NCBI RefSeq assembly: GCF_009687845.1
Contig: NZ_BLAD01000051.1
Span: forward strand, 1-64,000
Source: Acrocarpospora corrugata
Lineage (GTDB): Bacteria; Actinomycetota; Actinomycetes; Streptosporangiales; Streptosporangiaceae
Length of the DNA stretch: 64,000 nucleotides
Reading direction: 5' to 3'
The stretch's first letter is position 1. Every line of letters begins with the position of its first letter. Both the position numbers and the translations under genes were made by a program. Below the pieces are notes generated by a model that made no database searches, was not told where the DNA came from, and worked only from the letters and a program-made list of their open reading frames with translations. Below are positions 234-21,766 of this stretch, one piece after another.

Positions 234-391
234 GGACCCGGGAATCTTGGCTTAGGGTGAAAATTCGTGAGAGATAAGAATTGGTGCCAAATGCCCTCCC
301 GGAAATTCGGGGGAAGGTATGTAGAGAACGGCAGGGCTAAAGGGGACCGCGATCACGTTAGAGGTTGCCGGGATTGCTCGAAAACTCTGAA

Positions 392-1675: not shown

Positions 1676-4128
1676 GCCCGGTAGCGGGCCAGGGTGTCCT
1701 GCAGAAGTCGGTCGCCTTCCTCGGCGGCGCCCGCCGCGCGCAGGTCGAGCGCCAGGTTGCCGGCGCACGACAGCGTTAGGAAGTGGTCCGCCCCGAATAG
1801 GGTGCGGAGCCGTTCCAGGGTCTCCTCGCCGAGCCGGCGGGCCGCCGCGGTCTCGCCCAGCGCCGCCAGGTCCGATTGCAGGTTCACCGCGGAGCTGAGG
1901 GTGTAGTCGTGCGGCCATCCCAGCCGGCGCACCAGCGCGTCCACTGCGGCCTGGTTCGTCTCCCGCGCCTTGGCCGGTTCGCCGCGCAGCCGGTGCAGCA
2001 CGGCAAGGTTGCCGTTGCAGGCGTGCGTGAACGGGTGGTCGCTGTCGTACACCAAGGAGTACTGCGGCACGGTCTCCAGCGCCAGCGCGAACGCCCTGTC
2101 CAGGTTACCCAGCATCCGGTACGCGTTTGACCGGCTGACCGCCGCCGCGAGCGTGTCTGGGTGCTGCTCACCGAGTAGTTGCCGGAGCCGGGTGTGGGTG
2201 TCCTCGGCCAGCTCCAGCGCGTCCTCCAGGTGGCCCAGGCGGCGCTTCGCGATGGACAGGTCCTTGGCCGCCAGCAGCGTCTGGTGGTGGTCCGGGGACA
2301 GCTGCTGCCGGCCGTAGTCGAAGGCGTCCTGGCCGAGGTCGCAGGCCATCTCGTAGTCGCCGCAGAGCCGTACCGCGCGGGACAGGCCGCTGTAGGTGCC
2401 GAGCAGCATCCGCGGGCCGACCCCGTGCCGGGCCGTGCTCAGGTCGCGCAGCAGGTTCTGCAGCAGGTCGCGGGAGCGGGCGTAGTCGCTGGTCAGCGAG
2501 TAGTCGATGGCCAGGTTGTGGCGGGCCCGGAACACATTGGCCGGGTCAGGATCCATGCATTCCTGGTAGCTGTTCAGCAGCTCCTCGTGCAGCTCGCGGG
2601 CTCGGTGGAACTCGCCCCGGCTGATCAGCGTGAGGCCATAGCTGTTGGTGGCCCACAGCGTCTCGGAGTGGCCTAGGCCGAGCACGGCGCGCATCTGGTC
2701 CAGGTTCGCGTGGTCGTTCTCGTACGCGGCCGCGTACATGCCCAGCCCGCGCAGGATGTTGCCGAGATGCTTGCGGGCCACCAGCACGTCGGCGTGGGTG
2801 GCGCCGTTGCGCTCGGTCCACCGGGCGATGAACTCCTCCACGAACGTGCGGGCCAGGGGGTAGTTGCCCGCCAGGTAGAGGTAGCGGACCGTGTCGAGGG
2901 CGAACTCGCGCACGTTCGGCGACTGGCACTCGGCCAGGTTGGAGTGCACGATGTGCGGGACCAGTTCCTCGAAGCTCTTCCAGTTGTTGTTGTCCTCGGC
3001 GTCCCGGGGGGCGCTGTGCGCCAGCAGCAGATGCACCTCGTGTCGGATGTCGTGCTGCTCGGCCTCGTTGAGTTCCTCCCGGAGCAGGGTCTGGATCAGC
3101 CGGTGCACCGTGATCGTCCGGGTGGCTGAGTCGATCTTGGCGAGGGCGTACCGGCCGAGCACGCTGAGCGCCTTGGTCAGCATCAGCGGGTCGGCCAGGA
3201 TCGGCGCGATGCGCGGCGTGTCGGTCTGGGTGCCGCGCCGGAACACGTCCCGCGGGATCGGCTCCGGGCCGAAGAACGCGCAGCAGCGGAGCACCTCGAT
3301 CGCCTCCGGCAGCCGCCGCCGCAGCTCGTGCACGGACAGGCCCCACGCCGCCGCCATGGACTGCGGGTAGCCTTCGGCCTTGTTCGCCGCCATCAGCCGG
3401 GTGGTCTGCTCGTCCAGTAACTCGATGTACTCGTCGATGGACATGGCCGTCTCGAACATGAGCGCGCCCGCCTGCTCCAGCGCCAGCGGCAGGTCCCCCA
3501 GCTTCTCGGCCAGCGTGTTCGCGGTCTCGTCGCGGATCTCCCGGCGCACCCGGTTCTTCAGGAAGGTCACGCTCTCCTCCCGGTCGAACACGCTGACCTC
3601 AAGGGTGGTGCCGTGACTGGTCCACAGCGTGTTCCGGGAGGTGATCAGCACGTGGCCGGAGCCGCGCGGGATGTAGTCCTCCAGGTCCGTCGGCTGGTTC
3701 GCGTTGTCGAAGATCACCAGCCAGCGCCGGTACGGCTCGCCGCGCTCCAGCGCCCGCTTGACCGAGGCCGCGGTCTCCTCGATCCCCATGCCGATGCCCG
3801 GCGGCAGCCCGAGGTGCGGCGCCAGCGCCGCCATCGAGGCCGGCACCAGCTCACGCTGCTCAGCCGGGACCCAGTAGATGACGTCGTAGTGGCGTCGATA
3901 GCGCCACGCGTACTCGATCGCGAGCTGGGTCTTGCCGATACCGCCCTGCCCCTGCAGGGCCTGCGGCTGCGCCTCCGGCACCACCGCGGTGACCTGGCTG
4001 ATCCCGTCCCGCAATTTCAGCAGGAGATCCTCCCGGCCGGTGAAGTGCGGATTACGCGGGGGAACACGTTCCCAGATGCTGGGTTGCCGATCCGGAGTCG
4101 AATGCACCGCGCCACCTGAAAGTTCCAT
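1591..4128 (-). CDS. NB-ARC/TPR protein of an FxSxx-COOH-type locus, short form
   Basis: 845-residue STAND-type protein. A GREDLL-type NB-ARC entry is followed by a P-loop at residues 60-68 (GQGGIGKTQ), a Walker B-like LVIFDNA, a sensor-like HVLITSR and a GLPL-like LGDLPLALEQ. The second half is a string of TPR units of the kind found in FxSxx-COOH system TPR proteins, and its last residues (RINCDFDPQSI) resemble those of the larger homologue at 7646-11548 (RVNRDLEPQPI). It lacks the ParA-like and TIR-like N-terminal parts of that homologue. ATG 4128 is chosen because GGTGGAGG precedes it by 6 nt; an in-frame ATG at 4191 exists. It converges on the FxsB-like gene with an 85-nt overlap. The role is probably regulation or sensing (inferred). 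Confidence 0.85.
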   Translation of the reverse strand: MELSGGAVHSTPDRQPSIWERVPPRNPHFTGREDLLLKLRDGISQVTAVVPEAQPQALQGQGGIGKTQLAIEYAWRYRRHYDVIYWVPAEQRELVPASMAALAPHLGLPPGIGMGIEETAASVKRALERGEPYRRWLVIFDNANQPTDLEDYIPRGSGHVLITSRNTLWTSHGTTLEVSVFDREESVTFLKNRVRREIRDETANTLAEKLGDLPLALEQAGALMFETAMSIDEYIELLDEQTTRLMAANKAEGYPQSMAAAWGLSVHELRRRLPEAIEVLRCCAFFGPEPIPRDVFRRGTQTDTPRIAPILADPLMLTKALSVLGRYALAKIDSATRTITVHRLIQTLLREELNEAEQHDIRHEVHLLLAHSAPRDAEDNNNWKSFEELVPHIVHSNLAECQSPNVREFALDTVRYLYLAGNYPLARTFVEEFIARWTERNGATHADVLVARKHLGNILRGLGMYAAAYENDHANLDQMRAVLGLGHSETLWATNSYGLTLISRGEFHRARELHEELLNSYQECMDPDPANVFRARHNLAIDYSLTSDYARSRDLLQNLLRDLSTARHGVGPRMLLGTYSGLSRAVRLCGDYEMACDLGQDAFDYGRQQLSPDHHQTLLAAKDLSIAKRRLGHLEDALELAEDTHTRLRQLLGEQHPDTLAAAVSRSNAYRMLGNLDRAFALALETVPQYSLVYDSDHPFTHACNGNLAVLHRLRGEPAKARETNQAAVDALVRRLGWPHDYTLSSAVNLQSDLAALGETAAARRLGEETLERLRTLFGADHFLTLSCAGNLALDLRAAGAAEEGDRLLQDTLARYRAQNGSGHPDAVLAARGVRINCDFDPQSI

Positions 4129-4416
4129 CTGAAACCTCCACCCCTGGAATCTGGGATATAGCCCAATACTAAAGCTTGATTTCGCACTCATGCTGACTAC
4201 AGAATCCTAAGGAAGCATGGCCGGTTTTCGGGGTGCCAGGCGGGGGAGAACCTGCCCCAAATAGATCAAGTGGTCGCCCTCGATATGTGGTGCGAGGAAA
4301 GTGCCGGGACCGGTTCGATCACGAGGTGATGCCGCTACCTGCATTGTGCTGATTGAGGACGATTACCTGGAGTTCGTCGTCAACCTGACTCACGAACGGG
4401 CTGCGGAGACCCGCCT

Positions 4417-4521
4417 GTGCTTCCGTCCACGACCACGCGGCCGCTCCCGTTCGTCGGCTACAGCGTGCAGGACTGGACCTCCGGTGAGCAGCTTTGCGAG
4501 CGGATGGGAACGGTCACGTGA
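4417..4521 (+). CDS. Possible 34-aa ORF coupled to the STAND ATPase
   Basis: A GTG-initiated 34-residue frame with a good GGAG Shine-Dalgarno (4405-4408) and a stop that overlaps the next gene's GTG start as GTGA (4518-4521). That overlap suggests translational coupling. The peptide reads RPLPFVGYSVQDW then TSGEQLCERMGTVT; it has one cysteine and three aromatics (F, Y, W). I recognise no family. It could be a small effector, a modified peptide for the orphan maturase at 392, a leader that couples translation, or chance. Size and composition alone do not settle this. Confidence 0.35.
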   Translation: MLPSTTTRPLPFVGYSVQDWTSGEQLCERMGTVT

Positions 4522-6545
4522 ATACGGGAACCGGAAAGGCAAGGGTCGACGGTCGGCCCTACGTGGGGCTGCGGGCCTTCCAGCGCGCTGACAGCCACAA
4601 GTTCTTCGGCCGCGAGCGGGAGGCGTACGAGGTCGCCACCCGGTGGCAGGCCAATCGGCTGACGATCATGCACGGCCCGTCCGGCGTCGGCAAGACGTCC
4701 CTGATCAACGCGGGGGTGCTGCCGCTGCTGGACCCGGACGCGACCGACGCGCTGCCGGTGGGCCGGGTCTCACACGGCTCTGCCTTCCCAGCCGCCGGTT
4801 CCGCCCGCGACCCCGCCGCCGCGCTACCGCCGCAACACAACCCGCACGTGTTCGCGCTGCTGTCCACCTGGGCGCCGCATGAGTCGCCGACCCGGCTGGC
4901 CCGGCTCACCCTGGCGAGCTTCCTGCGCGGCCGACCGCCCCGGCAGGACGCGTTCGGCGATCCGGTCCTGGTGCTGCTCGTCATCGACCAGGCGGAAGAG
5001 TTGTTCGACGACTTCGCGCACCGGCAGCCATACCGGGAGTGGTTCCTGGAGCAGTTACGGGCTGCGCTCCGCGCGGATGAGAACATCCGGCTGCTGCTGT
5101 GCATCCGGGACGATCACCTCGCCTCGATCATGCCGTACAGGTCCATGCTGGTCGGGCATAGCCACAGCCGGTTCTGTCTGGATCCGCTCGCCAGGGAGGA
5201 GGCCAGACAGGCGATCGAGGGGCCACTGGCCGGAACCGGGCGCAGTTTCACCCCGCCCGCGCTGCGCAAGCTGCTCAACGACCTGTGCGTGGAGCCCGGC
5301 GGGCCGCTGCCCGAGCAGGCGCAGGCCGAACCGGTGCAGCTGCAGGTGGCCTGCTCGATGCTCTGGCGGTCGCTCCCGGCCGGGGTCACGAAGATCACCC
5401 AGGTGCACGTGGGCGACGTGGCCGCCGCCGACGAGCAGGTGACCGATTTCTGCGAGGAGATGGTCCGCGAGGTCGCCACCGAGCACCTCAATGGCGACCT
5501 GCCCCGGCTGACCGGCTGGCTGGCCCGAACCTTCGTCACCGAGCTGGTCACCCGCCAGCGGGTCGACATGGGTGAGACCGTGACGGCCGGGATGGACAAC
5601 GCGCTCGTCCAGGCGCTGGTCGACCGGGACATCCTGCACGCCGACCGGGGCGGCTGGTGCGAGCTCTCGCACGACCGGCTAATCCACCCCATTCTTAAGG
5701 CCGCCGGGCCGATCGATCTGTCCCGCGAGGTCAGGGACCCTGACGACTTCCTGCGCGCGGCCGAACTCGCGCTCCGCGACCGCGACCTGGCGCTGGCCGA
5801 GAACCTGGCCGGTGAGGCGCTCCAGCGGGTCGCCGGGGACATCCGGCTGGAGGCCGAGATCCGGACCTTCCTCGGCAACGTGGCCTACCAGGCCGAGGGG
5901 TATGACACCGCGATCGAGCGGTACCGCGATGCGGCCCGCCTGTTCGAGATGCTGGGCGCGATCGACGCGGTCGGGCGGCTGCTGGTCGGCATCGGCCGGC
6001 TCCGGCTGGCCCAGGGCCGCCCCGGCGAGGCCGTGAACGAACTGGCCGCCGCGATGCGCAGACTCCCGCACGACCGCAGCGTCAAGATCGCGCTGGCCTG
6101 GGCGCTCTGGCACGACGGCGCCCCGCAGATGGCCCGGGACATCCTCACCGACGTGCTCGAACAGGAGGGTGGCTCGCTGGACGCGCTGCAGGCGCGTGGC
6201 GAGATCCTGGCCGGTATGGGGCTGAGCGCCGCCGCCCTGCGCGACCTCAATCGCGCCGGACCGCTGCAGTGGCCCTCCACCAAGGCCGCGCACGCGCTGG
6301 CCGCCACCCGGCTCGCCGCCCACGAGCCGACCGAGACCGCGCAGGAGATTGACAAGGAGATCATGGAGGCGCTCGCCGACGCGCCGGACAGCGGCCCGGT
6401 CCAGCTCTACGCCGCCTGGATCAGCGCCGCCGCGGGCAACCGGGAGGCCGCCGTCGCCCACGCCGAGCGCGCACTGTCAGCCCACACTCCGAGCCTGCCC
6501 GGCCACCTCGTCCCGGCGGCCCGCAGGCTGACCTCGGCCGCGTAA
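4518..6545 (+). CDS. nSTAND-type NTPase with C-terminal TPR-like repeats
   Basis: About 675 residues. The N-terminus has the nSTAND entry signature PYVGLRAFQ followed by FFGREREA, a P-loop at residues 53-60 (GPSGVGKT) leading into SLINAGVLP, and a Walker B-like LVLLVIDQAEELFDDF near residue 155. After the NTPase and winged-helix part, the last third is alpha-helical and TPR-like (the stretches around LAENLAGEAL, GYDTAIERY and GRPGEAVNEL). Such proteins act as signal-dependent ATPase switches in conflict or regulatory systems. No effector domain is fused, so output may lie in a neighbour. GTG 4518 is chosen because GATGGGA precedes it by 8 nt and the upstream small frame overlaps it by 4 nt. 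It diverges from the NB-ARC/TPR gene at 1591-4128. Confidence 0.8.
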   Translation: MNTGTGKARVDGRPYVGLRAFQRADSHKFFGREREAYEVATRWQANRLTIMHGPSGVGKTSLINAGVLPLLDPDATDALPVGRVSHGSAFPAAGSARDPAAALPPQHNPHVFALLSTWAPHESPTRLARLTLASFLRGRPPRQDAFGDPVLVLLVIDQAEELFDDFAHRQPYREWFLEQLRAALRADENIRLLLCIRDDHLASIMPYRSMLVGHSHSRFCLDPLAREEARQAIEGPLAGTGRSFTPPALRKLLNDLCVEPGGPLPEQAQAEPVQLQVACSMLWRSLPAGVTKITQVHVGDVAAADEQVTDFCEEMVREVATEHLNGDLPRLTGWLARTFVTELVTRQRVDMGETVTAGMDNALVQALVDRDILHADRGGWCELSHDRLIHPILKAAGPIDLSREVRDPDDFLRAAELALRDRDLALAENLAGEALQRVAGDIRLEAEIRTFLGNVAYQAEGYDTAIERYRDAARLFEMLGAIDAVGRLLVGIGRLRLAQGRPGEAVNELAAAMRRLPHDRSVKIALAWALWHDGAPQMARDILTDVLEQEGGSLDALQARGEILAGMGLSAAALRDLNRAGPLQWPSTKAAHALAATRLAAHEPTETAQEIDKEIMEALADAPDSGPVQLYAAWISAAAGNREAAVAHAERALSAHTPSLPGHLVPAARRLTSAA

Positions 6546-6706: not shown

Positions 6707-6771
6707 GTATGGACTCCGGGTGAAATGTGGGAAAACCTCATATAACGGGTGGTGTCGTGGGGAGGCTTCTC

Positions 6772-7677
6772 TTGTCGCGGATTGTTGTTGCGCCTGATGG
6801 TCGAAGCTTGGCAGTCGAGATATGGGGGAAGCCGGACGGGACGCCCGTCTTTCTGCTGCACGGCACCCCGGGGGGCCGGTTTCAGCCCAGGCCGCGGGAG
6901 AAGTCGCTGCACATGCTGGGGATCCGGCTGATCAGCTTCGACCGTCCGGGGTACGGGGGGTCGGCCCGGCGGCTCAACCGGACCGTGGGGGATGTCGCGG
7001 CCGATGTGGCGGCCATCGCGGACGCGCTCGGGCTGGGGGTCTTCGCGGTCGTCGGCAGGTCGGGTGGGGCGCCGCACGCGCTCGCCTGCGCCGCGCTGCT
7101 GCCCGACCGGGTGACCAGGGCGGCCGCGCTGGTCGGTCTCGCGCCGCGGACGGCCGAGGGGCTGGACTGGTTCGAGGGCATGATCGACGCCAATGTCATG
7201 GCGTACACGGAGGCGCGGGCGGGGCATCGGGCCATCACCGCCCGGCTGCGGGTGGCCGCCCGGGAGATCAGGGCCGATCCGGGCAGCAAGGTCCGTGGCA
7301 TCTACGAGCAGGTGCCGGAGTCGGACCGGCGGGTCGTCGGGGACAACGGGATCCGCCGGATGCTGGAGCGCAACTTCGTCGAGGGGCTGCGGGACTCGGT
7401 CGACGGCTGGGTGGACGATGTGATGGCCTTCTCCATCGGCTGGGGGTTCGAGGTGTCGGCCATCACGGCCCCCACCCTGCTCTGGCACGGCGAGAACGAC
7501 GTGTACTCGCCGGTCGGGCACGCGTACTGGCTGGCCGGCCGCATCCCGCACGCGGACGTGTGGATCCAGCGCGGGGCGGCGCACTTCGGGGCGCTGGAGG
7601 TGCTGCCCCGGGTGCTGGCCTGGCTGGTGCGCGGGAGCGGTGAGGTCAGATCGGCTGCGGCTCCAAGTCCCGGTTGA
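6772..7677 (+). CDS. Alpha/beta hydrolase
   Basis: 301-residue alpha/beta-hydrolase fold enzyme, cytosolic (no signal peptide). Visible elements are the oxyanion-hole region LLHGTPGG, the nucleophile elbow GRSGG (Ser), the acid in HGENDVYSP (Asp) and the catalytic His in AAHFGAL. The substrate cannot be told. TTG 6772 is preferred because GGGGAGG lies 6 nt upstream; a GTG at 6727 is in frame but has no clear ribosome-binding site. The 3' end overlaps the convergent fxsT gene by 32 nt. It follows the STAND gene on the same strand after a 226-nt gap, so membership in the fxs island is positional only. Confidence 0.85.
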   Translation: MSRIVVAPDGRSLAVEIWGKPDGTPVFLLHGTPGGRFQPRPREKSLHMLGIRLISFDRPGYGGSARRLNRTVGDVAADVAAIADALGLGVFAVVGRSGGAPHALACAALLPDRVTRAAALVGLAPRTAEGLDWFEGMIDANVMAYTEARAGHRAITARLRVAAREIRADPGSKVRGIYEQVPESDRRVVGDNGIRRMLERNFVEGLRDSVDGWVDDVMAFSIGWGFEVSAITAPTLLWHGENDVYSPVGHAYWLAGRIPHADVWIQRGAAHFGALEVLPRVLAWLVRGSGEVRSAAAPSPG

Positions 7678-10600
7678 CGCGGCGCCACTCCCGCAGCGCC
7701 AGGCTGCTGGGGTGGTGCTCGCCGAGGCGCGCGCTGACCGCCGCCAGCGCCTCCTTGTGCACCTGGGCCGACTGCGTGGTCTGCCCGAGGGCGCGCAGGG
7801 TGATGGCGTAGTTCGCCTGGCAGGCGAGAGTGTCCGGATGGTCCCGCCCGAGGGTGGTGAGCAGGCTGGTCAGGGCCTGCCGCTCCAGCCGCTCCGCGAG
7901 TTCGTTGTCGCCCGTGTCCGCCGCGCAGTTGGCCACGTTGATCGTGCACGACAGCGCGAACGGATGGTTGTCGCCGAGCCGGTCCCGCATGGTGGCGAGC
8001 GTCTGCTGGCCGAGGTCCAGCGCGCCGGCCAGGTCGCCGGTGCCCCGCCGGTAGGTCATCAGGTTGTTGGCCGCCACCAGCGTGTACGGGTGCTGCTCGC
8101 CGAGCCGGGCCCGGTAGCCGTCGAATACCGACGCCGCCAGATCGCGCGCGCTCTCCTTGTCGTCCACCGCCGACAGGCAGCAGGCCAGTTCGAGCGCGGC
8201 CGCGCTGGACTCCGGGTGGAATGGGAACAGCCGCTGGTAGTGATCATGGGTGTCCTGGGCCCGCTTCAGCGCCTCCTGCCGGTCGCCGGCCCGCCGCAGC
8301 GAGACCGCGATGCTCTTGGCGGCTCGCAGCGCGTCCGGGTAGTCGTCGAACTGCAGCATCGTGTAGCCATGCAGCGTCCGGGTCAGCAGCGCCACGGAAT
8401 CGGCGAACTCGCCCGCCTCCCGCATGTCCCTGGCCAGGTTCTGCGCGGTGCTCAGCGTGTACGGATGCCCGGGGCCGAACACCTCGCCCATCCGCCGCAG
8501 CGTGTCCTCGTCGAGCTCCTTCGCGCTGCGCCAGTCGCCGACCAGCCGGTAGGAGACCGCCAGGTTGTTGGCCGAGTTCAGCGTCCTCGGGTAGTCCTCG
8601 CCGTAGGTCTCCTTCCACTGCTCGTGGTTGTTGCGGTCCATCTCCAGCGCCCGGGGGAACTCGCCCAGCGCCCGCAGGTCGGCGGCCAGCCCGCCGGTCG
8701 TCATCAGCGTGTGCGGATGGTTCTCCTTCAGCGTCTTGCTCTGCTGGGCCAGCACCCACTCGTCGAGCTTCAGCGCCTCATCGAAGTTGCCCTGCGAGCG
8801 GAGCACATTGGCGATGTTGAACAGCATGTGCAGACGCTGCCGCTCCAACTGCCCGAACTTCTCCTCCCAGTAGTCGGCGAGCCGCTGGCCCAGCTGGATC
8901 GCGCTGTCGAACTCGCCGCGCTTCCACCAGTAGCGCACGCGCTCGGTGAGCAGCTGCCTGGTCTCCTCCTCCACGCACTTCTCGGCGTCGGAGGGGAGCA
9001 GGTGCGGCCAGATCAGGTCGTACTGCTGCCAGTTCTCCGGGTCGTCGACCTCGCCGGTCTGCGGGCGGGCCGCCACCAGGATGTGGTGCACCTGGTGCGA
9101 GATGGTCTCGATGTCGTCGGGCGACATCTGGTCTCTGATCACGGTCTGCACCAGCCGGTGGACCTGGATGGTCTTGCTGCCCTGGTCGATCTTCGCCAGC
9201 GCGAACCGGCTGATCTCCCGGATGACCCGGCCGAGCACCAGCTTCTCCCCGCGCAGCGAGTCGTCGTAGGGCAGCAGCGCGCGCATCATGTCGTCGCTGT
9301 AGATCAGCGACAGCGAGATCGGGTCCGGCGAGAAGTACGCGCAGAGCTGGAGCATCCGCTCGGCGGCGGGTGACCTGCTGCGCAGCTGTTCGAGCGAGAC
9401 GTTCCAGGTCGCGGCGACCGAGTTCTCGTAGTCCGTGGGCCGGTTCATGGCCAGGATCCTGGGCGCCTGCTTCTGCAGCTGGGTCACGTACTCGGAGGCG
9501 GACAGCCCGGTCTCGCTCAGCCAGGCGGCGGCCTGCTCGACCGCCAGTGGCAGGAAGCCGAGTTCCTCCGCGACGCTCAGCGCGTCCACCGGGGCCAGCC
9601 TGGGTACGCGGCGGAGCAGGTGCTCCACGCTCTCCTGCTGGCTGAACACGTCGACTTCCAGCGGGGCGGCGATGTTGGACCAGGTCTGGATCCGGGAGGT
9701 GACGATGACGTGCCCGCTGCCGCCCGGCAGGAACGGCTTGAGCTCCTCCGGGTCGCCCGCGTTGTCGAAGATCAACAGCCAGCGGGCGTGCGGCTCACCC
9801 CGGCGCAGCGCCTCGCGGGCGGCCAGTGCGCCCTCCACCACGCTGTCGCTGACCGGCAGCCCGATCCGCCTGGCCAGCTCCGCCAGCATGGGGTTGATGA
9901 GGTCGGGCTGTTCCGCGGGGATCCACCACACCAGGTCGTAGTCGGCCGCGAACCGGTGCGCGTACTCCAGCGCGACCTGGGTCTTGCCGACGCCGCCCAT
10001 GCCGTACAGCGCCTGCGGGAGCACCACGGCCTGGCTGCTGCCCAGCAACTGGTTGCGTAGCGTCTCCAGGGCCAGGTTCCGGCCGGTGAAGGAGGCGTTG
10101 CGGGTGCCGACGCTCCAGATGGACGGCTGGGTGCCCGGGTACCGGGTGCCGAGCTGGGAGAGCTCGATCATGTCGTGGCCGTGCCCGCCGCGCCCCACCG
10201 CCCGCAGGACCGCCTCGGCCGCGTCCTCCGGGCCCAGCCGGACCAGGTCGACCGGCGGCCGGTCGGCGATGGGCATGGTCAGCCGCACCGCTTCGGAGAC
10301 CCGGAGGGCGACCACCTCGGGAGCCATCCCGGTGGACAGGTCGCCGCTCGGCCACTCGTCGCGATGGAATCCGCGCAGGTACGCCGAGGAGAGGATGACG
10401 ACGGTGCTGGCCGACTCGGGCAGGTCCTGGGTGGGGGATCGGTCGCCGGTGCCGTACCGGGTCTGCGGGGTGACCCGGAAGCCGGCCTGTTCCAGCACGG
10501 CCATCACCCAGTCCGCCCACATCCGATCCTCCGGCGCGTAGCTCAGCCGCACGTCGGGATGCTGGGTCGGCTGCCGCCTGGTGAACGCCTCCAGCCACCG

Positions 10601-11548
10601 CAGCCGGACGCTCTCCTCCATCGGGGGCATGCCCGTGACGGAGGATTCGGTGATGGCGGCGGTGAGCCGCTCGTACGCCGAGAGCAGCGAGCCTGGCGAG
10701 CCGGGGCTGTCGCCGAAGGTGGCCAGCGTCTCCTCGAACGCGTAGAACCGCTTGTACGGAACCTCGATGGTGGCCCAGTAGCTTTTCACCGAGTCGCCGG
10801 ACAGCCCTTTCGGGAAGCCGATGAACTGGTCCCTGGCGTGCATACGCCCCGCGTCGACCTTCTTCTTCTCCCCGTCGTCGACCCGCATCAGCACCGGCAG
10901 AATCCGGATCCGCTGATCTGGATACTGCTTGTCGATGATCCGGGCGACTTCGGCGGCGCCGTCGATGCTCTGGTCGCTCATGGTGAAACAGTCGACCAGC
11001 ACATCCGGCAGCGCGATCGTGCAAATGTCGGCGATATCGCTGAACCCGGTGCGGCTGTCGATCAGCGTGTAGTCGTAGTGGCGGCGCATGTCGGCTTGCA
11101 GGGCGTCCAGGAACTGCCCGCCGCCCCGCTCATAGAAAACGTCGAGGTCGAATGTGGACAGCGAGGAATAGTCCCGGTTGCGGCGCCCGGCGGAGAGGAA
11201 GTCCAGCGTTCCGTCACCGGGGAAATCCCATTTCTCCAGGGAGACCGCGTGCCGGGTCACCCGGGCGAAGTCCTTGTGCCAGTCCGGCTCGGCATGCGGC
11301 GTCGTGGTGGCCCACTGATAGTCCGCGATCATGTCCACCACGCCTTTCGTGGCGGCGATCACGCTCACGTCCAGGAAGGGGTGAAAGAACCGGTGCAGCC
11401 CGGGTGATTCCAGGTCCCAGTCGATGACGAGAACACGCCGCCCCTGACTGGCCAGAATCCACGCGGTGTTGGCGAGGGCCATGGTGCGGCCGGTCCCGCC
11501 CTTGAACGAATAGAAGGTGATGATCTTGCCATTCAGGTCACTTGCCAT
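7646..11548 (-). CDS. fxsT: FxSxx-COOH system protein: ParA-like, TIR-like, NB-ARC, TPR
   Basis: 1300-residue multidomain protein and last gene of the fxs operon. Residues 1-300 are a ParA/MinD-like ATPase with the deviant Walker A KGGTGRT (residues 16-22), where Arg replaces the usual second Lys, and a switch-like DSRTGFSDI. From about residue 332 a degenerate TIR-like segment follows (DVRLSYAPEDRMWADWV, later VVILSSAYL). An NB-ARC with P-loop GMGGVGKT (about 516-523), LLIFDNAG and LGFLPLAVEQ comes next, then many TPR units to the C-terminus (ending RVNRDLEPQPI). Family knowledge: this is the 'FxSxx-COOH system tetratricopeptide repeat protein'. The start ATG 11548 overlaps the end of fxsC by 11 nt. 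It is likely a NTP-driven sensor or scaffold (inferred). The symbol fxsT is informal. Confidence 0.9.
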   Translation of the reverse strand: MASDLNGKIITFYSFKGGTGRTMALANTAWILASQGRRVLVIDWDLESPGLHRFFHPFLDVSVIAATKGVVDMIADYQWATTTPHAEPDWHKDFARVTRHAVSLEKWDFPGDGTLDFLSAGRRNRDYSSLSTFDLDVFYERGGGQFLDALQADMRRHYDYTLIDSRTGFSDIADICTIALPDVLVDCFTMSDQSIDGAAEVARIIDKQYPDQRIRILPVLMRVDDGEKKKVDAGRMHARDQFIGFPKGLSGDSVKSYWATIEVPYKRFYAFEETLATFGDSPGSPGSLLSAYERLTAAITESSVTGMPPMEESVRLRWLEAFTRRQPTQHPDVRLSYAPEDRMWADWVMAVLEQAGFRVTPQTRYGTGDRSPTQDLPESASTVVILSSAYLRGFHRDEWPSGDLSTGMAPEVVALRVSEAVRLTMPIADRPPVDLVRLGPEDAAEAVLRAVGRGGHGHDMIELSQLGTRYPGTQPSIWSVGTRNASFTGRNLALETLRNQLLGSSQAVVLPQALYGMGGVGKTQVALEYAHRFAADYDLVWWIPAEQPDLINPMLAELARRIGLPVSDSVVEGALAAREALRRGEPHARWLLIFDNAGDPEELKPFLPGGSGHVIVTSRIQTWSNIAAPLEVDVFSQQESVEHLLRRVPRLAPVDALSVAEELGFLPLAVEQAAAWLSETGLSASEYVTQLQKQAPRILAMNRPTDYENSVAATWNVSLEQLRSRSPAAERMLQLCAYFSPDPISLSLIYSDDMMRALLPYDDSLRGEKLVLGRVIREISRFALAKIDQGSKTIQVHRLVQTVIRDQMSPDDIETISHQVHHILVAARPQTGEVDDPENWQQYDLIWPHLLPSDAEKCVEEETRQLLTERVRYWWKRGEFDSAIQLGQRLADYWEEKFGQLERQRLHMLFNIANVLRSQGNFDEALKLDEWVLAQQSKTLKENHPHTLMTTGGLAADLRALGEFPRALEMDRNNHEQWKETYGEDYPRTLNSANNLAVSYRLVGDWRSAKELDEDTLRRMGEVFGPGHPYTLSTAQNLARDMREAGEFADSVALLTRTLHGYTMLQFDDYPDALRAAKSIAVSLRRAGDRQEALKRAQDTHDHYQRLFPFHPESSAAALELACCLSAVDDKESARDLAASVFDGYRARLGEQHPYTLVAANNLMTYRRGTGDLAGALDLGQQTLATMRDRLGDNHPFALSCTINVANCAADTGDNELAERLERQALTSLLTTLGRDHPDTLACQANYAITLRALGQTTQSAQVHKEALAAVSARLGEHHPSSLALREWRRVNRDLEPQPI

Positions 11549-12794
11549 CGGAATCCTCCGTCTTCGTCAGTCGCGGTCGGGTGCCAAGCGGGCCACTCGG
11601 GCGATGGATGGGCGCCGACTTGAAGTAGCTCTTGGCGGCGCTGCTGAAAATTCTCGGCAGATCACGCTGAAATGCGGCCAGGGAGGTGATGTGGCTGGCG
11701 GCGGGCAGTCCGGGCCGTTCCGGAATGGCGTCCAGGAGCAGTTCGCGCAGGACCGTCTCGGCTTCGGCGGTCTGCTCGTCCCGGAGGTTCCAGGGCACGA
11801 TCGGCAGCGGCCGCCGGTCCAGCCCGCAGACCCGGCGCAGCACCTCCCGCGACTCCGGGTGCTGGACCGCCCACGGGTCCACGACGAGCACGCTGGGGGC
11901 GTCGAGCCCGTCGGTCAGATGTTCCAGGTGGCTGTCCAGCGAGCCGACTTCGAGCAGATAACCGTGCCGCAGCGCCAGCTCCATGGCATAGGACGCCAGC
12001 GGCCGATGCTCCCCGGATTCGGGAAATGGATTCCACTCCTGCGGGGTCTGGCCATAGGTCGCCGCCTTACGTCCGCTGGGCAGCCGGGACAGATCCGGAG
12101 CGACCATGGTCAGGCGCATCCGCGGGGAGGAGGACTTGACCGCCGGTTCCGCGACGAGGTCGTTGAACGCGCTGGTCAGGCTCTGATAGTCGACGGGTTC
12201 CGCCACCGGGACGAGATCCTGCTCCGCCACCTTGATGATCCGGCGCGCGAGAGCTTTGATCGCGGTCTCGTAGTGGGTCCGCATCGACCGGGACTTCATG
12301 AGCCCGTAGAAGCCCTCCTGGCGATATCGAGGGCCGAACATCTCGTGATCGAACTGTATTTCCTGTGCGCATTTCGGAAGCTGCTCCGGGTCGAGGAGCG
12401 GCGCCCACAGAGCCGGGATGATGGCGGTCATCCGGTTGCCGTGATCAGTGGTCGTATGGAGTCGCTGCGCGAAAGCCGTCCATTCCTTCCCGCATTCTGC
12501 GCTGTCGAAGTATCGGGGGGAGTACAGCGGGATGAAAACCCGGCAAGTGGCCAATGCGTTGGCGAGCTGTTCCGGCCATCGATCGCCGGACTGAATGCCG
12601 CGATCCATGAAACCCGCGTGCGCGGCCTTGAGCTTGGTCTCGTTTAGCACGATCTCGGAAAGATCGAGAAATAGCTTCGCTACCCACCTGTTCGGATCGG
12701 GCCCTCGGTTCGAGTCGAGACCGGGGATGTGCGCATAGCTAAGAAAGAAGCAGGGGCCTTGGACCACTGATCGTGAGGTCGGGTTCGGTGGCAT
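11538..12794 (-). CDS. fxsC: TIR-like protein FxsC
   Basis: 418 residues. The N-terminal half is TIR-like: strand A FFLSYAH (residues 16-22), then FMDRGI, GDRWPEQL, VFIPLYSPRYF and CGKEW, with Glu104 in the place where TIR enzymes carry their catalytic glutamate. The C-terminal half (from about PSVLVVDPWA onward) matches the arrangement known for FxsC, whose C-terminal domain is specific to FxSxx-COOH systems. NADase activity is an inference and may be absent. ATG 12794 is chosen because AAGGAGG precedes it closely; an in-frame upstream extension to 12896 has no supporting signal and would run into the acetyltransferase gene. It lies 41 nt after that gene and overlaps fxsT by 11 nt. Confidence 0.9.
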   Translation of the reverse strand: MPPNPTSRSVVQGPCFFLSYAHIPGLDSNRGPDPNRWVAKLFLDLSEIVLNETKLKAAHAGFMDRGIQSGDRWPEQLANALATCRVFIPLYSPRYFDSAECGKEWTAFAQRLHTTTDHGNRMTAIIPALWAPLLDPEQLPKCAQEIQFDHEMFGPRYRQEGFYGLMKSRSMRTHYETAIKALARRIIKVAEQDLVPVAEPVDYQSLTSAFNDLVAEPAVKSSSPRMRLTMVAPDLSRLPSGRKAATYGQTPQEWNPFPESGEHRPLASYAMELALRHGYLLEVGSLDSHLEHLTDGLDAPSVLVVDPWAVQHPESREVLRRVCGLDRRPLPIVPWNLRDEQTAEAETVLRELLLDAIPERPGLPAASHITSLAAFQRDLPRIFSSAAKSYFKSAPIHRPSGPLGTRPRLTKTEDSDGK

Positions 12795-12835
12795 CCGCCT
12801 CCTTCCTCGCGGGGGCTTTACCGTAGGAACGCAGA

Positions 12836-13666
12836 TTAGTCCGAGGGAGTGCCTGCAAGGAATATTTCGTTCGGATTTCTCCGGTGTAACAACCAATTTG
12901 TGGCGAAATCGACCGCTATGGGCATGGCAAAGAACCGGGATTCCGCGTTTCCGACCATGCCGGCACTGACCGTTACGGCCTGTTCGAAATCAGCACCCAA
13001 CTGTGCGAAATCGCTGTCGTCGAGGACCATGTCCTGATATTCCCACCAGGTCCGACCGTAGCCGAAATCGACGACGCAGCGGTACGTCCGGATGGGAGGG
13101 CTGTCCGAATATCGATATTCGGCGAGGTGGAATGCGGTGCAGATGTCGAATCCGACGCCGAGGAGCAGCACCCGCGCGTCCGCCGCGTAGAGCCTCGCGA
13201 GCGGTGACTCCTCGCCGTAGTGGCAGGTCGGGGAATGGCCGGCCATGAGTTCCCCGGCTTGCGCGCCGACCGCCGCGAACGACGTCTGCGGGTGCGCGCT
13301 CCGGCGGGCTCCCGGTGTCAGGCGCACCTGCTCGGCCACCCGGCCCACGCCGGTGCTGGGCGTCCGCGCCGGGTCGAAGGCGGGCATGGCGGCCTGGTAG
13401 CGCGCGACCTCCTCGGCGCTCATGCCCTCGACGGCCTGCCGGTACAGGGGGGAGGTGTCCGAATTGTCGGCCGTGGAGGTGAGGGCGACCAGGGTTCCGG
13501 CCGGGCCCAGCAGCGCCCGAATCACCTCGACCAGGGTGGCCGCGCCGCCGGCCACCCTGCCGATCCGGGAGAGCGAGCAGTGCACCAGGACGGTCTGCCC
13601 GGAGTCGACCCCGAGCGCGCTCAGATCACGGAGCAGGTCCGCCCCGGTTACCGGTACGGCGGTCAC
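12836..13666 (-). CDS. AAC(3)-family N-acetyltransferase in the fxs operon
   Basis: 276-residue member of the aminoglycoside 3-N-acetyltransferase (antibiotic_NAT) family. Supporting motifs are LVHCSLSRIGRVAGGA near the N-terminus, HPQTSFAAVG in the middle, and LLLGVGFDICTAFHLAEY. The enzyme uses acetyl- or acyl-CoA to modify an amine. GTG 13666 overlaps the stop of fxsB as GTGA, so the two are translationally coupled; this ties it to peptide maturation rather than to free-standing antibiotic resistance. Possible roles are acylation of the FxsA product or a self-protection step (both inferred). The coding frame runs open further upstream, but that part is antisense of nothing useful and in the wrong frame of fxsB, so the short form is taken. 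Confidence 0.88.
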   Translation of the reverse strand: MTAVPVTGADLLRDLSALGVDSGQTVLVHCSLSRIGRVAGGAATLVEVIRALLGPAGTLVALTSTADNSDTSPLYRQAVEGMSAEEVARYQAAMPAFDPARTPSTGVGRVAEQVRLTPGARRSAHPQTSFAAVGAQAGELMAGHSPTCHYGEESPLARLYAADARVLLLGVGFDICTAFHLAEYRYSDSPPIRTYRCVVDFGYGRTWWEYQDMVLDDSDFAQLGADFEQAVTVSAGMVGNAESRFFAMPIAVDFATNWLLHRRNPNEIFLAGTPSD

Positions 13667-15879
13667 GCCGGGCTGGAACCGGGCCCGCTTTCCCAGCTCG
13701 CGACGGTCTCCCGCATCCGGCCGACGAGGCGCTCCCCGAAGGACGTGAGCCGGCCCGAGGAGGCCAGGGTCTCGATCGCCCGCGCGGTGTGCGCCCGCCA
13801 GAGAACGTACTGCTCGTGTGCCCTGACCCGCTCCGGGCCGGTGAGCCGGGCGCGCCAGAAGTCGCTGACCGCGATGTGCGCGTAGGTTCCCTGGAGCAGG
13901 CCCTCGAGCGGCCTCGGGTCGTCCCGCCAGGGCGCGTGGTAGAGCGTGCTGTCGGATTCGTCGTACAGATCGAACATGTCGAGCATCGCGCCCAGTTTGA
14001 CGTGCTGGAACTCGTGGATGAGCAGCAGCGCCAAGGTGGCGGGATCGGCGGGCAGGGCGGCGGCGACGGCGCCGAAGGCGTGCCTGGCGGTGGAGGACAC
14101 ATCCTTCCCGGCCGGGGCGGGCGCCAGCGGCATGATCGTGGACAGGCCCGCGCGCAGCCCGGGGGCATACTCGGGGTAGTCGGACTCGATCAGCTGCCAG
14201 GCCAGGCTGAAACAGCCGTGCCAGGCGTCGAAGTCCGTCTTCCCGAGCTTCGCCGCGGCCGGCCACTGATGGCAGTCCCGGCTGGGGTCGCGGTCTTCCA
14301 GCAGAACAGAGAAGCCGCCCGCGTCGAGCCGGCGAACCTCGGTCAGCGGGGTGGCCGGGCCGTCGATCCAGGTCGATCCGCCCTCGATGACCAGCGTCGC
14401 CGAGTCGCCGGTCACATCGTCGAAGGTGCCCACAGTGGGGAGGTGAACGCTGCCGCCGAGGACCTGGACGAGGATTTTGGCGTCGATGCCGGCACGGTAG
14501 GCCGCGGCGGCGGCGACGTTGGCCAGGTATCCGCCATGGGTCCGGCTGGCCGCCCAGACCCGGACGTACGGGTGGGCCAGTACGGTGCGCAGGGCGGCAG
14601 GATCGGTCCGGTCGGCCTGGACCAGGAGTTCCCAGGCGGCCGCCGGACGCTCCGGCACCGAGGCGATGATCATGCGCTGGATGCTCGCCTGGGAGCGGGC
14701 GAGCGCTTCGATGTCCTCGGCGCCGCCGTACCCGGCCGCCAGGGCGTCGAAGGTGGAGGGAGGGAGGCCGTGGTTGGTCATCGTCGTGTGATCCTGGACG
14801 TGGGTGATGAGAGCCAGCAGGTCGGCGCAGTAGACGCTGGGGTGGTCGAAGGAGTCCTCGCGGAACCGGTGCGGGTAGAGCCCGCCGCCGCAGCTCCGGA
14901 CCACCGGGCATTTCTGGCATGTCGCGGAGAGCCCCTGGAGTCCCCGCTGGCGGGCCTGGACGCCAGGGTGCCGCGCCACTTCGTTCAGTGAGCTTCCGGC
15001 CAGGTCGAACCCGGTGGCGGGCGCGCCGTCGAAGGCGACTTTCAGGGAGTCGACCTGCTCGTAGCCGCCGTCGGTCTCGATGACGACGAGCGTGCTGGGT
15101 TCGAGGCCGATCGCCTCGCTCAGGCTGCTGCGCTCGTGGGTGGTGTTGATGATCGATTCGAACAGGCGGACCGGGATGGGACGGCCGCCCGCGTGCCAGC
15201 GATCGAAGATCGCGATCAGCCAGTCGGCGTAGGCCGTGGCGGACGGGCGCGGCGGGGGGTCTTCCCAGGTCGCGTGCGGGAGCAGGAAGTCCACGCGGGG
15301 AGGTTCGAGGGAGAGCAAGGCGTCGTACACCTTGATCGGGTCATTGGCGACGTCGATGGTGCAGAGCAGGCCCGCGTAGATCTCCGGACGGGCCCGGAGC
15401 AGGGACACCGCTTGAATTACCTGCTGGTAGCTGCTGCGGCCGTTCCTGAAGAGGCGATGGCGGTCATTCGCGATCTTGTCGCCGTCCAGGGAGATTCCGA
15501 CTTTAACCCCGTTTTCGGTGAAAAGGTCGCAGAACTTCTCGTCAAGGGTGACGCCGTTTGTATGGATGGCAAGATTGAGGTGGCAGAGCCCGTCGAGTTG
15601 TTCCCGCAGCAGGGTGACGATCTCGGCCAGCCGGTCATGCCCGGCCAGCAACGGCTCGCCCCCGTGGAGCACGACGTGAATCGTGCTCACGTCGTGCTGT
15701 TTCACGTGCTCGGCGATACGCTTTGCGGCTAATATCGCCGTTTCGACGGACATGACATTGGGGCGGCTGCGCCAGGTCTGATCAGCATGTTCGTAGACGT
15801 AGCAGTGGTCACAAGCAAGATCGCACCGACTATGAACCTTTAGTACATACTGATCGAATGGCAGGGTTATCCCACTCAC
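13663..15879 (-). CDS. fxsB: FxsB radical SAM/SPASM maturase fused to a HExxH domain
   Basis: 738 residues in two parts. Residues 1-380 are a radical SAM/SPASM enzyme with CxxxCxxC at Cys19, Cys23 and Cys26 (CDLACDHC), HGGEPLLAG and a C-terminal cluster including CQKCPVVRSCGGG and YC. Residues about 400-738 form a HEXXH-motif domain with HEFQH at 622-626; relatives of this domain have been described as iron/alpha-ketoglutarate peptide beta-hydroxylases. Family knowledge: FxsB enzymes form cyclophane-type crosslinks in FxSxx-COOH peptides. So two modifications of FxsA, crosslinking and oxidation, may be made by one protein (inferred). The GTG start at 15879 follows a GGGGCGAC stretch and lies 17 nt after the fxsA stop; the end overlaps the acetyltransferase start by 4 nt. 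Confidence 0.93.
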   Translation of the reverse strand: MSGITLPFDQYVLKVHSRCDLACDHCYVYEHADQTWRSRPNVMSVETAILAAKRIAEHVKQHDVSTIHVVLHGGEPLLAGHDRLAEIVTLLREQLDGLCHLNLAIHTNGVTLDEKFCDLFTENGVKVGISLDGDKIANDRHRLFRNGRSSYQQVIQAVSLLRARPEIYAGLLCTIDVANDPIKVYDALLSLEPPRVDFLLPHATWEDPPPRPSATAYADWLIAIFDRWHAGGRPIPVRLFESIINTTHERSSLSEAIGLEPSTLVVIETDGGYEQVDSLKVAFDGAPATGFDLAGSSLNEVARHPGVQARQRGLQGLSATCQKCPVVRSCGGGLYPHRFREDSFDHPSVYCADLLALITHVQDHTTMTNHGLPPSTFDALAAGYGGAEDIEALARSQASIQRMIIASVPERPAAAWELLVQADRTDPAALRTVLAHPYVRVWAASRTHGGYLANVAAAAAYRAGIDAKILVQVLGGSVHLPTVGTFDDVTGDSATLVIEGGSTWIDGPATPLTEVRRLDAGGFSVLLEDRDPSRDCHQWPAAAKLGKTDFDAWHGCFSLAWQLIESDYPEYAPGLRAGLSTIMPLAPAPAGKDVSSTARHAFGAVAAALPADPATLALLLIHEFQHVKLGAMLDMFDLYDESDSTLYHAPWRDDPRPLEGLLQGTYAHIAVSDFWRARLTGPERVRAHEQYVLWRAHTARAIETLASSGRLTSFGERLVGRMRETVASWESGPGSSPA

Positions 15880-15896
15880 GTCGCCCCGATCCGCCG

Positions 15897-16079
15897 CTAT
15901 AGAGACGACTGGAAGGCGGCCACGGCGACTCTCGGGTTGTCCGACGCCATCGGGACGATTCGAGCGAGCGTGGAGCGGTGCGATCCCTGAGCCGCGAGCT
16001 CCTCAAGCGAAAAATCATGAACATCCATGACCGCTGAGACCAGGTTCGGCGTGTCTGCCTTAGTGATCATCGTATCCAT
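15897..16079 (-). CDS. fxsA: FxSxx-COOH RiPP precursor FxsA
   Basis: 60-residue peptide ending in AAFQSSL, an exact F-x-S-x-x C-terminus (Phe-Gln-Ser-Ser-Leu) directly before the stop codon. The front part is acidic and Leu-rich (SAVMDVHDFSLEELAAQG), as expected of a leader read by the radical SAM maturase, and the stop lies 17 nt before fxsB. Known family behaviour: the conserved C-terminal segment is the modified core. ATG 16079 is used; an ATG at 16070 is also possible and gives 57 residues. A longer in-frame reading up to 16289 adds a low-complexity segment without a matching start signal and is rejected. This is the first gene of the operon fxsA-fxsB-aac(3)-fxsC-fxsT. Confidence 0.88.
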   Translation of the reverse strand: MDTMITKADTPNLVSAVMDVHDFSLEELAAQGSHRSTLARIVPMASDNPRVAVAAFQSSL

Positions 16080-16389
16080 TCCGGTGTAGGCCGCGTCGGC
16101 TCCAGGAAGCGCTCGCGCAGAGTACCAAGACCCTACGCACTTTAACGCTTCGCCACTGCCTTGTTGCGGGAAGTGACAGCTTGCTCTCGGTGTCATTTTC
16201 CATTGCGCGCTTCCAGGAGCGGGCAATGGGGATGGGAGGGGTGAGTCAAATTGCCATCCGTGATCGACCGAATATCGAGGTGGCAACACTATCTTAAAGG
16301 TAAGTAGTTGGTAAGGATGAAAAGCTGCCGCGATTTTGCTCGATTGCGCTTATTGTCCAAATAGTGTGGATTGTGAGTTTAGTCGTTGT
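16080..16389 (-). promoter_or_regulatory. Upstream region of the fxs operon
   Basis: A 310-nt noncoding stretch between the SLOG gene and fxsA, clearly more AT-rich than its surroundings around 16290-16389. Because fxsA opens the operon and the gap is long, the operon promoter probably lies here. I could not pick a convincing -35/-10 pair or a strong palindrome by eye, so no exact site is claimed. Confidence 0.45.
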
Positions 16390-16869
16390 TCAGTCCCCCG
16401 CGCGGGTGGCGCCATCGGGCCAGAGAATCTTCACGGGGATGGCCCGGCGTAGCGCCGCGTCCACGACCTCGGCGGTCCCGCCCGGCCCCCGGGCCGGTCC
16501 GCCGTCCCAGACGGCCACCAGCACGTCGGCGCTCGCCAGCATCACTTCGTTGGCCGCCGCGTAGACGGCCGGGGTGGGCGCGTCATGGGTGAGGCAGCGT
16601 ACCGGATCCGCCTGATCCAGAAGTCCCTCGAACCGTTCGCGTTCCTCGGAAGGGAGCACGGATCCGTAGCCGCGGACCGGGAGGATGGCCTCCAGCCTTC
16701 CGCCCAGGCTCAGGACCGTCTCGGCGAAGATCTGATCTGCCCCCGGCGCCAGGCAGGAGATTCCCACCACGGCGGTTCCGTGGGGCGTGAGCAGACCTTC
16801 CATCGCAGCCCGGACCAGATCCTCGGTCTCGGGGGTCAGGTCCCGGTGCCCGGTGACCGCTACCCGCAT
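16390..16869 (-). CDS. Stand-alone SLOG/LOG-like nucleotide-binding protein
   Basis: 159 residues with a Rossmann-like layout: strand plus loop RVAVTGHRDL at the N-terminus, GISCLAPGADQIFAE, VLVAVWDGGPA and GPGGTAEVVDAAL. This is the pattern of SLOG (SMF/DprA-LOG) domains, which bind nucleotides or nucleotide-derived ligands. There is no fused effector. ATG 16869 has GGTGGAG just upstream; the in-frame GTG at 16884 is less likely. It starts 24 nt after the stop of the M20 peptidase, so the two may be co-transcribed, and it lies 310 nt upstream of fxsA on the same strand. In Thoeris a SLOG domain senses a TIR-made nucleotide, which makes the neighbourhood with FxsC worth noting; any link here is inference. 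Confidence 0.65.
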   Translation of the reverse strand: MRVAVTGHRDLTPETEDLVRAAMEGLLTPHGTAVVGISCLAPGADQIFAETVLSLGGRLEAILPVRGYGSVLPSEERERFEGLLDQADPVRCLTHDAPTPAVYAAANEVMLASADVLVAVWDGGPARGPGGTAEVVDAALRRAIPVKILWPDGATRAGD

Positions 16870-16893
16870 GGTCTCCACCTTCACCGCGTCGGT

Positions 16894-19348: not shown

Positions 19349-20464
<1,116 letters not shown>

Positions 20465-20633
20465 ACCCTCATGATCCTCACCTGGGACGATGATTGTCGA
20501 CGCATTTTCCGCCTAAGGCCGGGAGCACGTGTAACCTCCTCGAAACTCTGGCACACCGGGTGTGAAATTGGGCTGGCATAGGAGTGGGGAGTAGCCGTAA
20601 CCGGAACATCGACCTGGCCACTTTGGAGGATAA

Positions 20634-21755: not shown

Positions 21756-21766
21756 GCTGACCAGAT

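What the first reader, a model, noticed from the sequence alone, without database searches (positions are those of the whole stretch)
7646..16079. Complete FxSxx-COOH RiPP operon: fxsA, fxsB-HExxH, aac(3), fxsC, fxsT
Five minus-strand genes with gaps or overlaps of -11 to +41 nt: a 60-aa precursor ending F-Q-S-S-L-COOH, its radical SAM/SPASM maturase, an AAC(3)-type acyltransferase coupled by a 4-nt overlap, a TIR-like protein and a multidomain STAND protein. The gene families are known from comparative genomics, but what the peptide does and why it travels with TIR/NB-ARC proteins is, to my knowledge, unresolved. A peptide that triggers or is guarded by an immune-type switch is one reading.
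Basis: partly seen in the sequence, partly recalled or inferred. Interest (0 to 1): 0.9.

Follow-up and report, generated by a model that had tools for sequence, protein, structure and literature searches.

The report
Peptide-gated TIR immune-type switch operon
A soil actinomycete carries a complete operon that makes a small ring-bearing peptide together with proteins resembling an NLR-type immune switch; the family is known, and relatives show a sixth conserved gene, a dedicated but optional acetyltransferase, and a sister version that uses a different NAD-destroying fold.

Summary
The five genes are real and at the stated places. FxsB-HExxH, FxsC and FxsT pass their NCBIfam cut-offs; FxsA has motif and position but 22.1 bits against a cut-off of 28. 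It is the standalone FxSxx-COOH system already outlined by Kaur et al. 2020 (PMC7159879), in a genome near Acrocarpospora phusangensis. Added here: (1) a sixth gene, an alpha/beta-hydrolase at 6727-7677, converges on fxsT in 68 of 73 named loci. (2) AAC(3) is optional (26 of 73) but dedicated: 46 fxs rows (36 distinct) form one clade apart from 11 others. (3) FxsC is a TIR with the Glu at the catalytic position in 84 of 84 rows. (4) A SLATT gene lies upstream in 45 of 73 loci and a SLOG-like gene in 40. (5) A sister 'type 2' locus joins the same peptide kind, maturase and NB-ARC-TPR protein to nSTAND1 and often SIR2; a degenerate copy lies at 365-6545 in this window. Best reading: the cyclophane peptide is the intracellular ligand of a STAND/NADase switch. 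Whether it triggers or restrains the switch is unresolved and directly testable.

The parts
15897..16079 (-). fxsA, 60-aa precursor; leader-type motif around DVHDFSL, C-terminal core AVAAFQSSL
   Evidence: Translation; TIGR04268 22.1 bits, below cut-off 28; recurrent in position in relatives; dN/dS 0.10 against A. phusangensis
13663..15879 (-). fxsB: radical SAM/SPASM cyclophane synthase (res. 8-363) fused to aKG-HExxH beta-hydroxylase-type domain (res. 559-722)
   Evidence: TIGR04269 566.6, TIGR04267 170.8 bits; closest solved: ChlB 9gm3 and HExxH chain 22nu; cluster Cys 67/68, SPASM Cys 321, 324, 330 68/68 but Cys351 56/68; HEFQH intact
12836..13666 (-). aac(3)-fold acyltransferase, optional tailoring gene, 4-nt overlap with fxsB
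   Evidence: PF02522 252.4 bits; NF033082 179.2, below cut-off 270; His180 in 46 of 46 rows, 36 of them distinct; fxs-specific clade
11538..12794 (-). fxsC: N-terminal TIR (predicted NADase) plus C-terminal flavodoxin-like domain
   Evidence: NF040588 199.5, TIGR04276 110.2; Glu104 84/84; structure models and fold comparison
7646..11548 (-). fxsT: KGGxGR MinD-like domain, second TIR-like domain, NB-ARC, TPRs
   Evidence: NF040586 1061.7, NF047398 140.6; Walker A Lys522 and Walker B Asp595 77/77, Glu398 of the second TIR only 40/77
6727..7677 (+). sixth conserved gene: alpha/beta-hydrolase convergent with fxsT (32-nt overlap)
   Evidence: PF00561 64.4 bits; convergent in 68 of 73 named loci; S112, D258, H286 69/69; tracks FxsC in 120 genomes
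16390..16884 (-). SLOG-like small protein upstream of fxsA; possible accessory part
   Evidence: Only sub-threshold Pfam hits: DNA_processg_A 21.3 of 29.6, YpsA SLOG 19.6 of 27.7; SLOG-like gene upstream in 40 of 73 loci, SLATT gene in 45, both in 38; homologues also common without fxs; no SLATT found at 16000-22000 here
365..1675 (+). second FxsB maturase, of the unfused type-2 kind, without its HExxH partner
   Evidence: TIGR04269 477 bits; type-2 comparison
1591..4191 (-). NB-ARC-TPR protein of the degenerate type-2 locus, convergent with the second FxsB
   Evidence: NF040586 984.7 bits; PF00931 35.6
4304..4479 (+). remnant of a SIR2-like gene in the type-2 slot
   Evidence: tblastn: all 32 SIR2 queries hit, best E 1.2e-11, in two frames
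4494..6545 (+). nSTAND1-TPR protein of the type-2 locus
   Evidence: PF20703 146.9 bits; divergent partner in type-2 loci

Best explanation
A standalone FxSxx-COOH system acting as an intracellular peptide-gated switch. Steps: FxsB recognises the FxsA leader and joins Phe to the Ser two residues on in the terminal F-Q-S-S-L (shown for MscB of the family, inferred here); the fused HExxH domain beta-hydroxylates a residue near the ring (inferred; optional in the family); the AAC(3) caps a free amine, most likely a new N-terminus after cleavage because the core rarely holds Lys (inferred, optional). The mature C-terminal peptide stays in the cell and is read by the TPRs of the STAND protein FxsT, perhaps together with the C-terminal domain of FxsC. 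When the ligand state changes, FxsT oligomerises and activates the FxsC TIR, which cleaves NAD+ (inferred from fold and invariant Glu); where SLOG/SLATT-like neighbours exist, the NAD-derived product may open a membrane effector (inferred). The convergent hydrolase trims or destroys the peptide and so sets its level (inferred). Shown here: gene content, conservation, and which parts are constant or optional. Whether the ligand turns the switch on or holds it off is open.
Confidence: 0.52

Rival explanations
1. The peptide is a toxin or antibiotic released from FxsA; TIR and STAND proteins regulate its production, and AAC(3) and hydrolase are self-protection.
For: RiPP maturation enzymes; Kaur et al. 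allow 'peptide toxin or signal'; AAC(3) resembles self-resistance enzymes; Streptomyces loci have a protease and a membrane gene downstream.
Against: Among clusters of at least 15 loci in the flanks, no exporter or protease family is shared beyond Streptomyces (Pfam was run on representatives, not on every flanking gene); core nearly invariant from Streptosporangiaceae to Streptomyces, unlike diversifying toxins; AAC(3) absent from 47 of 73 loci.
Confidence: 0.2
2. The system regulates development or specialised metabolism: FxsT is an AfsR-like NB-ARC-TPR regulator with the peptide as an internal pheromone-like cofactor.
For: FxsT matches AfsR over the NB-ARC region (NF053617 56.8 bits, far below cut-off); the 80 named loci kept are all from Actinomycetota, mostly filamentous genera (filamentous habit recalled); purifying selection.
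Against: No DNA-binding domain among the Pfam hits of FxsT; the TIR with invariant Glu and the SIR2 of type 2 point to NAD chemistry.
Confidence: 0.2
3. The AAC(3) is a passenger aminoglycoside-resistance gene that merely sits in the operon.
Against: 46 fxs rows (36 distinct) from two orders form one clade against 11 others from the family (SH-aLRT 97.7, quick tree); in the loci it lies between fxsB and fxsC; the 9 best hits in 61 genomes all lie in fxs loci; it misses the equivalog cut-off.
Confidence: 0.07

Closest known systems
Standalone FxSxx-COOH peptide-processing systems (Kaur et al. 2020, PMC7159879; section 24 read in full, other passages)
   Same: Peptide, rSAM-SPASM, HExxH zincin-like domain, AP-ATPase with MinD/ParA-like domain; SLOG and TIR named among effectors of related systems
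   Different: That paper calls the HExxH domain a peptidase; its main text has no occurrence of 'AAC', 'Sir2' or 'sirtuin'; its alpha/beta-hydrolase is paired with caspases and shown as exclusive of peptide-modification genes, unlike the convergent hydrolase here
Triceptides / 3-CyFE maturases (MscB; passages of PMC11002830)
   Same: FxsB-family enzyme (recalled), Phe-x-Ser core
   Different: Peptide sits at the very C-terminus and is tied to TIR and STAND proteins
ChlB/ChlBH fused rSAM-aKG-HExxH (cited in PMC12636437; PDB 9gm3, 8s5f)
   Same: Same domains by sequence
   Different: Context differs; the HExxH motif is lost in 46 of 85 distinct type-1 loci
TIR-NADase defence modules (SPARTA, Thoeris ThsB, plant TIR-NLR)
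   Same: TIR fold with catalytic-position Glu; STAND partner as in NLRs
   Different: Gated, on this reading, by a ribosomal modified peptide; no PADLOC-DB 2.0.0 system matched
Avs5 / DSR2 SIR2 defence (abstract starts of PMC12931631 and PMC11087589 in a search listing)
   Same: SIR2-like gene with STAND genes in type-2 loci
   Different: SIR2 and STAND are separate genes beside an FxSxx precursor

Membership tests
FxSxx-COOH system (NCBIfam) | FxsB passes TIGR04269 | tested here: met
   566.6 bits, cut-off 370
FxSxx-COOH system (NCBIfam) | Precursor passes TIGR04268 | tested here: not met
   22.1 bits, cut-off 28; a different locus on C39 passes at 30.7
FxSxx-COOH system (NCBIfam) | Short ORF ending F-x-S-x-x directly upstream of fxsB | tested here: met
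   FQSSL, 17 nt upstream
FxSxx-COOH system (NCBIfam) | FxsC and FxsT pass NF040588, TIGR04276, NF040586 | tested here: met
   199.5/130, 110.2/55, 1061.7/300
FxSxx-COOH system (NCBIfam) | HExxH domain with intact motif | tested here: met
   TIGR04267 170.8/40; HEFQH
FxSxx-COOH system (NCBIfam) | Cyclophane actually formed | not testable with these tools
   Needs mass spectrometry or NMR
TIR NADase | TIR fold | tested here: met
TIR NADase | Conserved catalytic-position Glu | tested here: met
   E104 in S-x-x-C-G-[KR]-E-W, 84/84; that this is the catalytic position rests on the motif (recalled), not on a printed residue pairing
TIR NADase | NAD+ cleavage | not testable with these tools
   No assay
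AAC(3) aminoglycoside acetyltransferase (NF033082 equivalog) | Curated cut-off | tested here: not met
   179.2 bits, cut-off 270
AAC(3) fold (PF02522) | Fold family and His of the HLxE motif | tested here: met
   252.4 bits; in the printed alignments the His of 3e4f/3ijw is Ala in 3n0s; 46/46 rows
Catalogued anti-phage defence systems (PADLOC-DB 2.0.0) | Match to a system | tested here: not met
   10 proteins: generic rSAM (pVip), MinD-part (PDC-M28B), weak ShosA for 16390-16884 and weak AAA hits for 19349-20464
VMAP/FtsH ternary systems | vWA and MoxR partners | not tested
   No search for them was run; none appeared among the window proteins scanned with Pfam

The most novel reading that the evidence does not exclude
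FxSxx-COOH loci are a family of RiPP-gated NLR-like immune switches: one conserved C-terminal cyclophane peptide and one NB-ARC-TPR receptor are combined with interchangeable NAD-consuming folds (TIR in type 1, SIR2 in many type-2 loci), with SLOG/SLATT as an optional membrane output and a dedicated hydrolase setting the ligand level in type 1. The peptide is an endogenous ligand whose ring reports that the cell is intact; loss or damage of the modified peptide during infection or stress releases NAD+ depletion.
Probability: 0.3. Interest if true: 0.9.

Novelty: new variant of a known kind. Interest (0 to 1): 0.63.

Why it matters
In the searches run (mostly listings seen) I met no tested function for FxSxx-COOH peptides. 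If the peptide is the ligand of a TIR/STAND switch, it would be a ribosomal, chemically modified internal ligand for an NLR-like protein, a mode of control not known to me in bacteria. The comparison narrows what to test: cyclophane core, maturase, TIR Glu, NB-ARC and hydrolase are the constant parts; hydroxylation and acetylation are optional.

Tried and rejected
Passenger view of AAC(3): not preferred because of the single fxs clade, though only 11 non-fxs AAC(3)s of the family were sampled (two fragment hits, L256 and L262, were left out) and no wider AAC(3) set.

Hydrolase as plain synteny: not preferred. Of 12 flanking clusters with at least 15 loci, five are confined to Streptomyces by genus count and several look like reverse-strand shadows of other genes; the others of note are the SLATT gene (48 loci by clustering, 8 genus groups) and the SLOG-like gene (43 loci, 9 genus groups). 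In 120 genomes (taken to be handles G000-G119, lists entered by hand): 30 both, 1 FxsC only, 3 hydrolase only, 86 neither, Fisher p 9.6e-24. The genomes are related, so that p is too small, and the 280-bit line was chosen after seeing the list.

AAC(3) against HExxH: no link (14 of 39 against 17 of 46). Core FNSAL/FSSAL goes with a lost HExxH, but largely within Streptomyces, so not used to name the hydroxylated residue.

Rows dropped: of 80 named loci, 7 without both fxsB and fxsT in the stretch; 112 type-1 rows reduced to 85 distinct, 5 of these without a recognised FxsA; type-2: 45 NB-ARC rows, 43 with convergent rSAM, 2 at an edge, 41 counted (the window's own degenerate copy among them), 13 with an FxsA by the strict pattern. 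A1 used 16 rows including the window out of 45 FxsC rows; A2 used the window plus 42 of 76.

Confidence in the best explanation moved from 0.50 to 0.52 for that reason.
Full report
OBSERVATION. NCBIfam models confirm FxsB (566.6 of 370), the HExxH domain (170.8 of 40), FxsC (199.5 of 130 and 110.2 of 55) and FxsT (1061.7 of 300). The precursor misses the TIGR04268 cut-off (22.1 of 28), and the AAC(3) misses the resistance equivalog (179.2 of 270) while matching PF02522 at 252.4 bits.

WHERE. The nearest named relative is Acrocarpospora phusangensis (FxsC 85% identical). The genome holds five FxsB-family genes over the cut-off, two of them in this window.

THE OPERON IN RELATIVES. FxsC occurs in 40 of 150 genomes drawn from the family and FxsB (E up to 1e-60) in 71 of 120. 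One scan of named genomes kept the best 80 of 397 FxsC relatives, from Streptosporangiaceae, Streptomycetaceae and one unplaced Actinomycetota MAG; records of the window's own genome may be left out. In 73 of the 80 the stretch holds fxsB, fxsC and fxsT, in this order in the listing; 26 of these 73 have aac(3) between fxsB and fxsC.

PRECURSOR. 82 distinct precursors end in an almost fixed core: Phe at -5 in 81, Ser at -3 in 78; the detection pattern itself limited these positions, and some loci gave none. Lys is found in the last ten residues of 3 of 82. A review passage reports that MscB, of InterPro IPR026335, joins Phe C4 to Ser C-beta (PMC11002830); that this entry is the FxsB family is recalled. 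So a Phe-Ser cyclophane at F-Q-S is the expected product here.

A SIXTH GENE. The alpha/beta-hydrolase at 6727-7677 converges on fxsT in 68 of 73 named loci, stop to stop at a median of 24 nt; three more carry it elsewhere and two show none in the stretch. S112, D258 and H286 are conserved in 69 of 69. The 73 loci fall in 16 named genera plus an unassigned group, and its cluster is in all of them. In 120 family genomes a strong homologue is present in 30 of 31 with FxsC and 3 of 89 without; read off the coordinates, 29 of the 30 lie on the FxsC contig within 5 kb. The closest solved chain is 9wlv, named a pimeloyl-ACP methyl ester carboxylesterase (179 bits); prolyl aminopeptidases reach 47 bits. 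It is a candidate for the missing peptide-processing step, but its substrate is unknown. Its presence in AAC-less loci argues that it does not act on the acyl group.

UPSTREAM NEIGHBOURS. A gene with SLATT_3 and SLATT_1 domains (two representatives, 121-144 bits) lies upstream of fxsA in 45 of 73 loci and a SLOG-like gene in 40, both in 38; 35 and 31 of these are in 39 Streptomyces loci, the rest spread over seven and eight other genus groups. The window has the SLOG-like gene (16390-16884) and no SLATT match at 16000-22000. SLOG-like homologues are present in 65 of 120 family genomes, mostly away from fxs loci, so the link is suggestive only. Pfam's name for SLATT is 'SMODS and SLOG-associating 2TM effector domain'; Thoeris passages show SLOG domains binding TIR-made cyclic ADP-ribose (PMC11204291).

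A SISTER TYPE. Unfused FxsB genes head a second architecture: rSAM and a separate HExxH gene converge on an NB-ARC-TPR gene, behind which an FxSxx-type precursor, an optional SIR2 gene and nSTAND1-TPR are read divergently. Of 41 such loci counted, 36 have HExxH, 33 nSTAND1, 17 SIR2 and 13 a precursor by a strict pattern (by eye about 19 in the looser list). SIR2_2 was confirmed by Pfam at 90-95 bits in three proteins, and GAG, Asn and His positions are kept in 30-32 of 32. The left end of this window (365-6545) is a degenerate copy: HExxH is gone, no precursor was found, and the SIR2 gene is a remnant at 4304-4479 hit by all 32 SIR2 queries. Tail-to-tail joining of fxsT with nSTAND1, as here, occurs in six Herbidospora and two other Acrocarpospora named genomes, not in A. 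phusangensis.

MECHANISM. Peptide kind, maturase and NB-ARC-TPR are shared by both types; the NAD-consuming fold differs. No exporter or protease family was found shared beyond Streptomyces among the larger flanking clusters, where Streptomyces loci do have a serine protease and an ABC-2-like gene downstream. The six genes tested (fxsA, fxsB, fxsC, fxsT, hydrolase, SLOG-like) are under purifying selection (dN/dS 0.10-0.25). I take this to favour an internal ligand for a STAND/NADase switch over an exported toxin. Whether the peptide switches it on or keeps it off is not decided by any result here. Kaur et al. [quoted passage not shown]

VERDICT. The locus is an intact member of a known kind. 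The convergent hydrolase, the dedicated AAC(3) clade and the SIR2-bearing sister type did not turn up in the searches and passages seen, in a library that lacks most subscription journals.

Noticed in passing
window 365-6545: Degenerate type-2 FxSxx locus: second FxsB, NB-ARC-TPR, SIR2 remnant, nSTAND1, at the edge of contig C51.
   Followed up: yes
L192:6301-7356 (-) and L164:5009-6181 (+): SLATT_3 + SLATT_1 effector gene upstream of fxsA, with a SLOG-like gene beside it, in many type-1 loci; absent near the window's fxsA.
   Followed up: partly
L070, L080, L082, L085: An extra TIR-only protein just upstream of fxsC; in L080 and L085 it follows fxsB directly, in L082 it follows aac(3), and in L070 no fxsB was detected in the stretch.
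   Followed up: no
L089 (own genome, C39 end): SIR2, FxSxx precursor and NB-ARC at a contig end; its precursor is the only match the TIGR04268 search listed in the genome.
   Followed up: partly
L158:11008-11847: Fragmentary AAC(3)-like frames beside a type-2 rSAM gene.
   Followed up: no
L078, L211, L212: FxsC found without fxsB or fxsT detected in the stretch fetched.
   Followed up: no
L124-L128: Inward-facing unfused FxsB genes about 15-18 kb apart, one side with a much longer NB-ARC-TPR protein whose N-terminal part has no Pfam match.
   Followed up: partly
Streptomyces type-1 loci among L192-L240: HExxH motif lost in every Streptomyces row, together with cores ending SAL instead of SSI; 38 of these loci also have a trypsin-like gene (alpha-lytic prodomain in the one tested) downstream.
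   Followed up: partly
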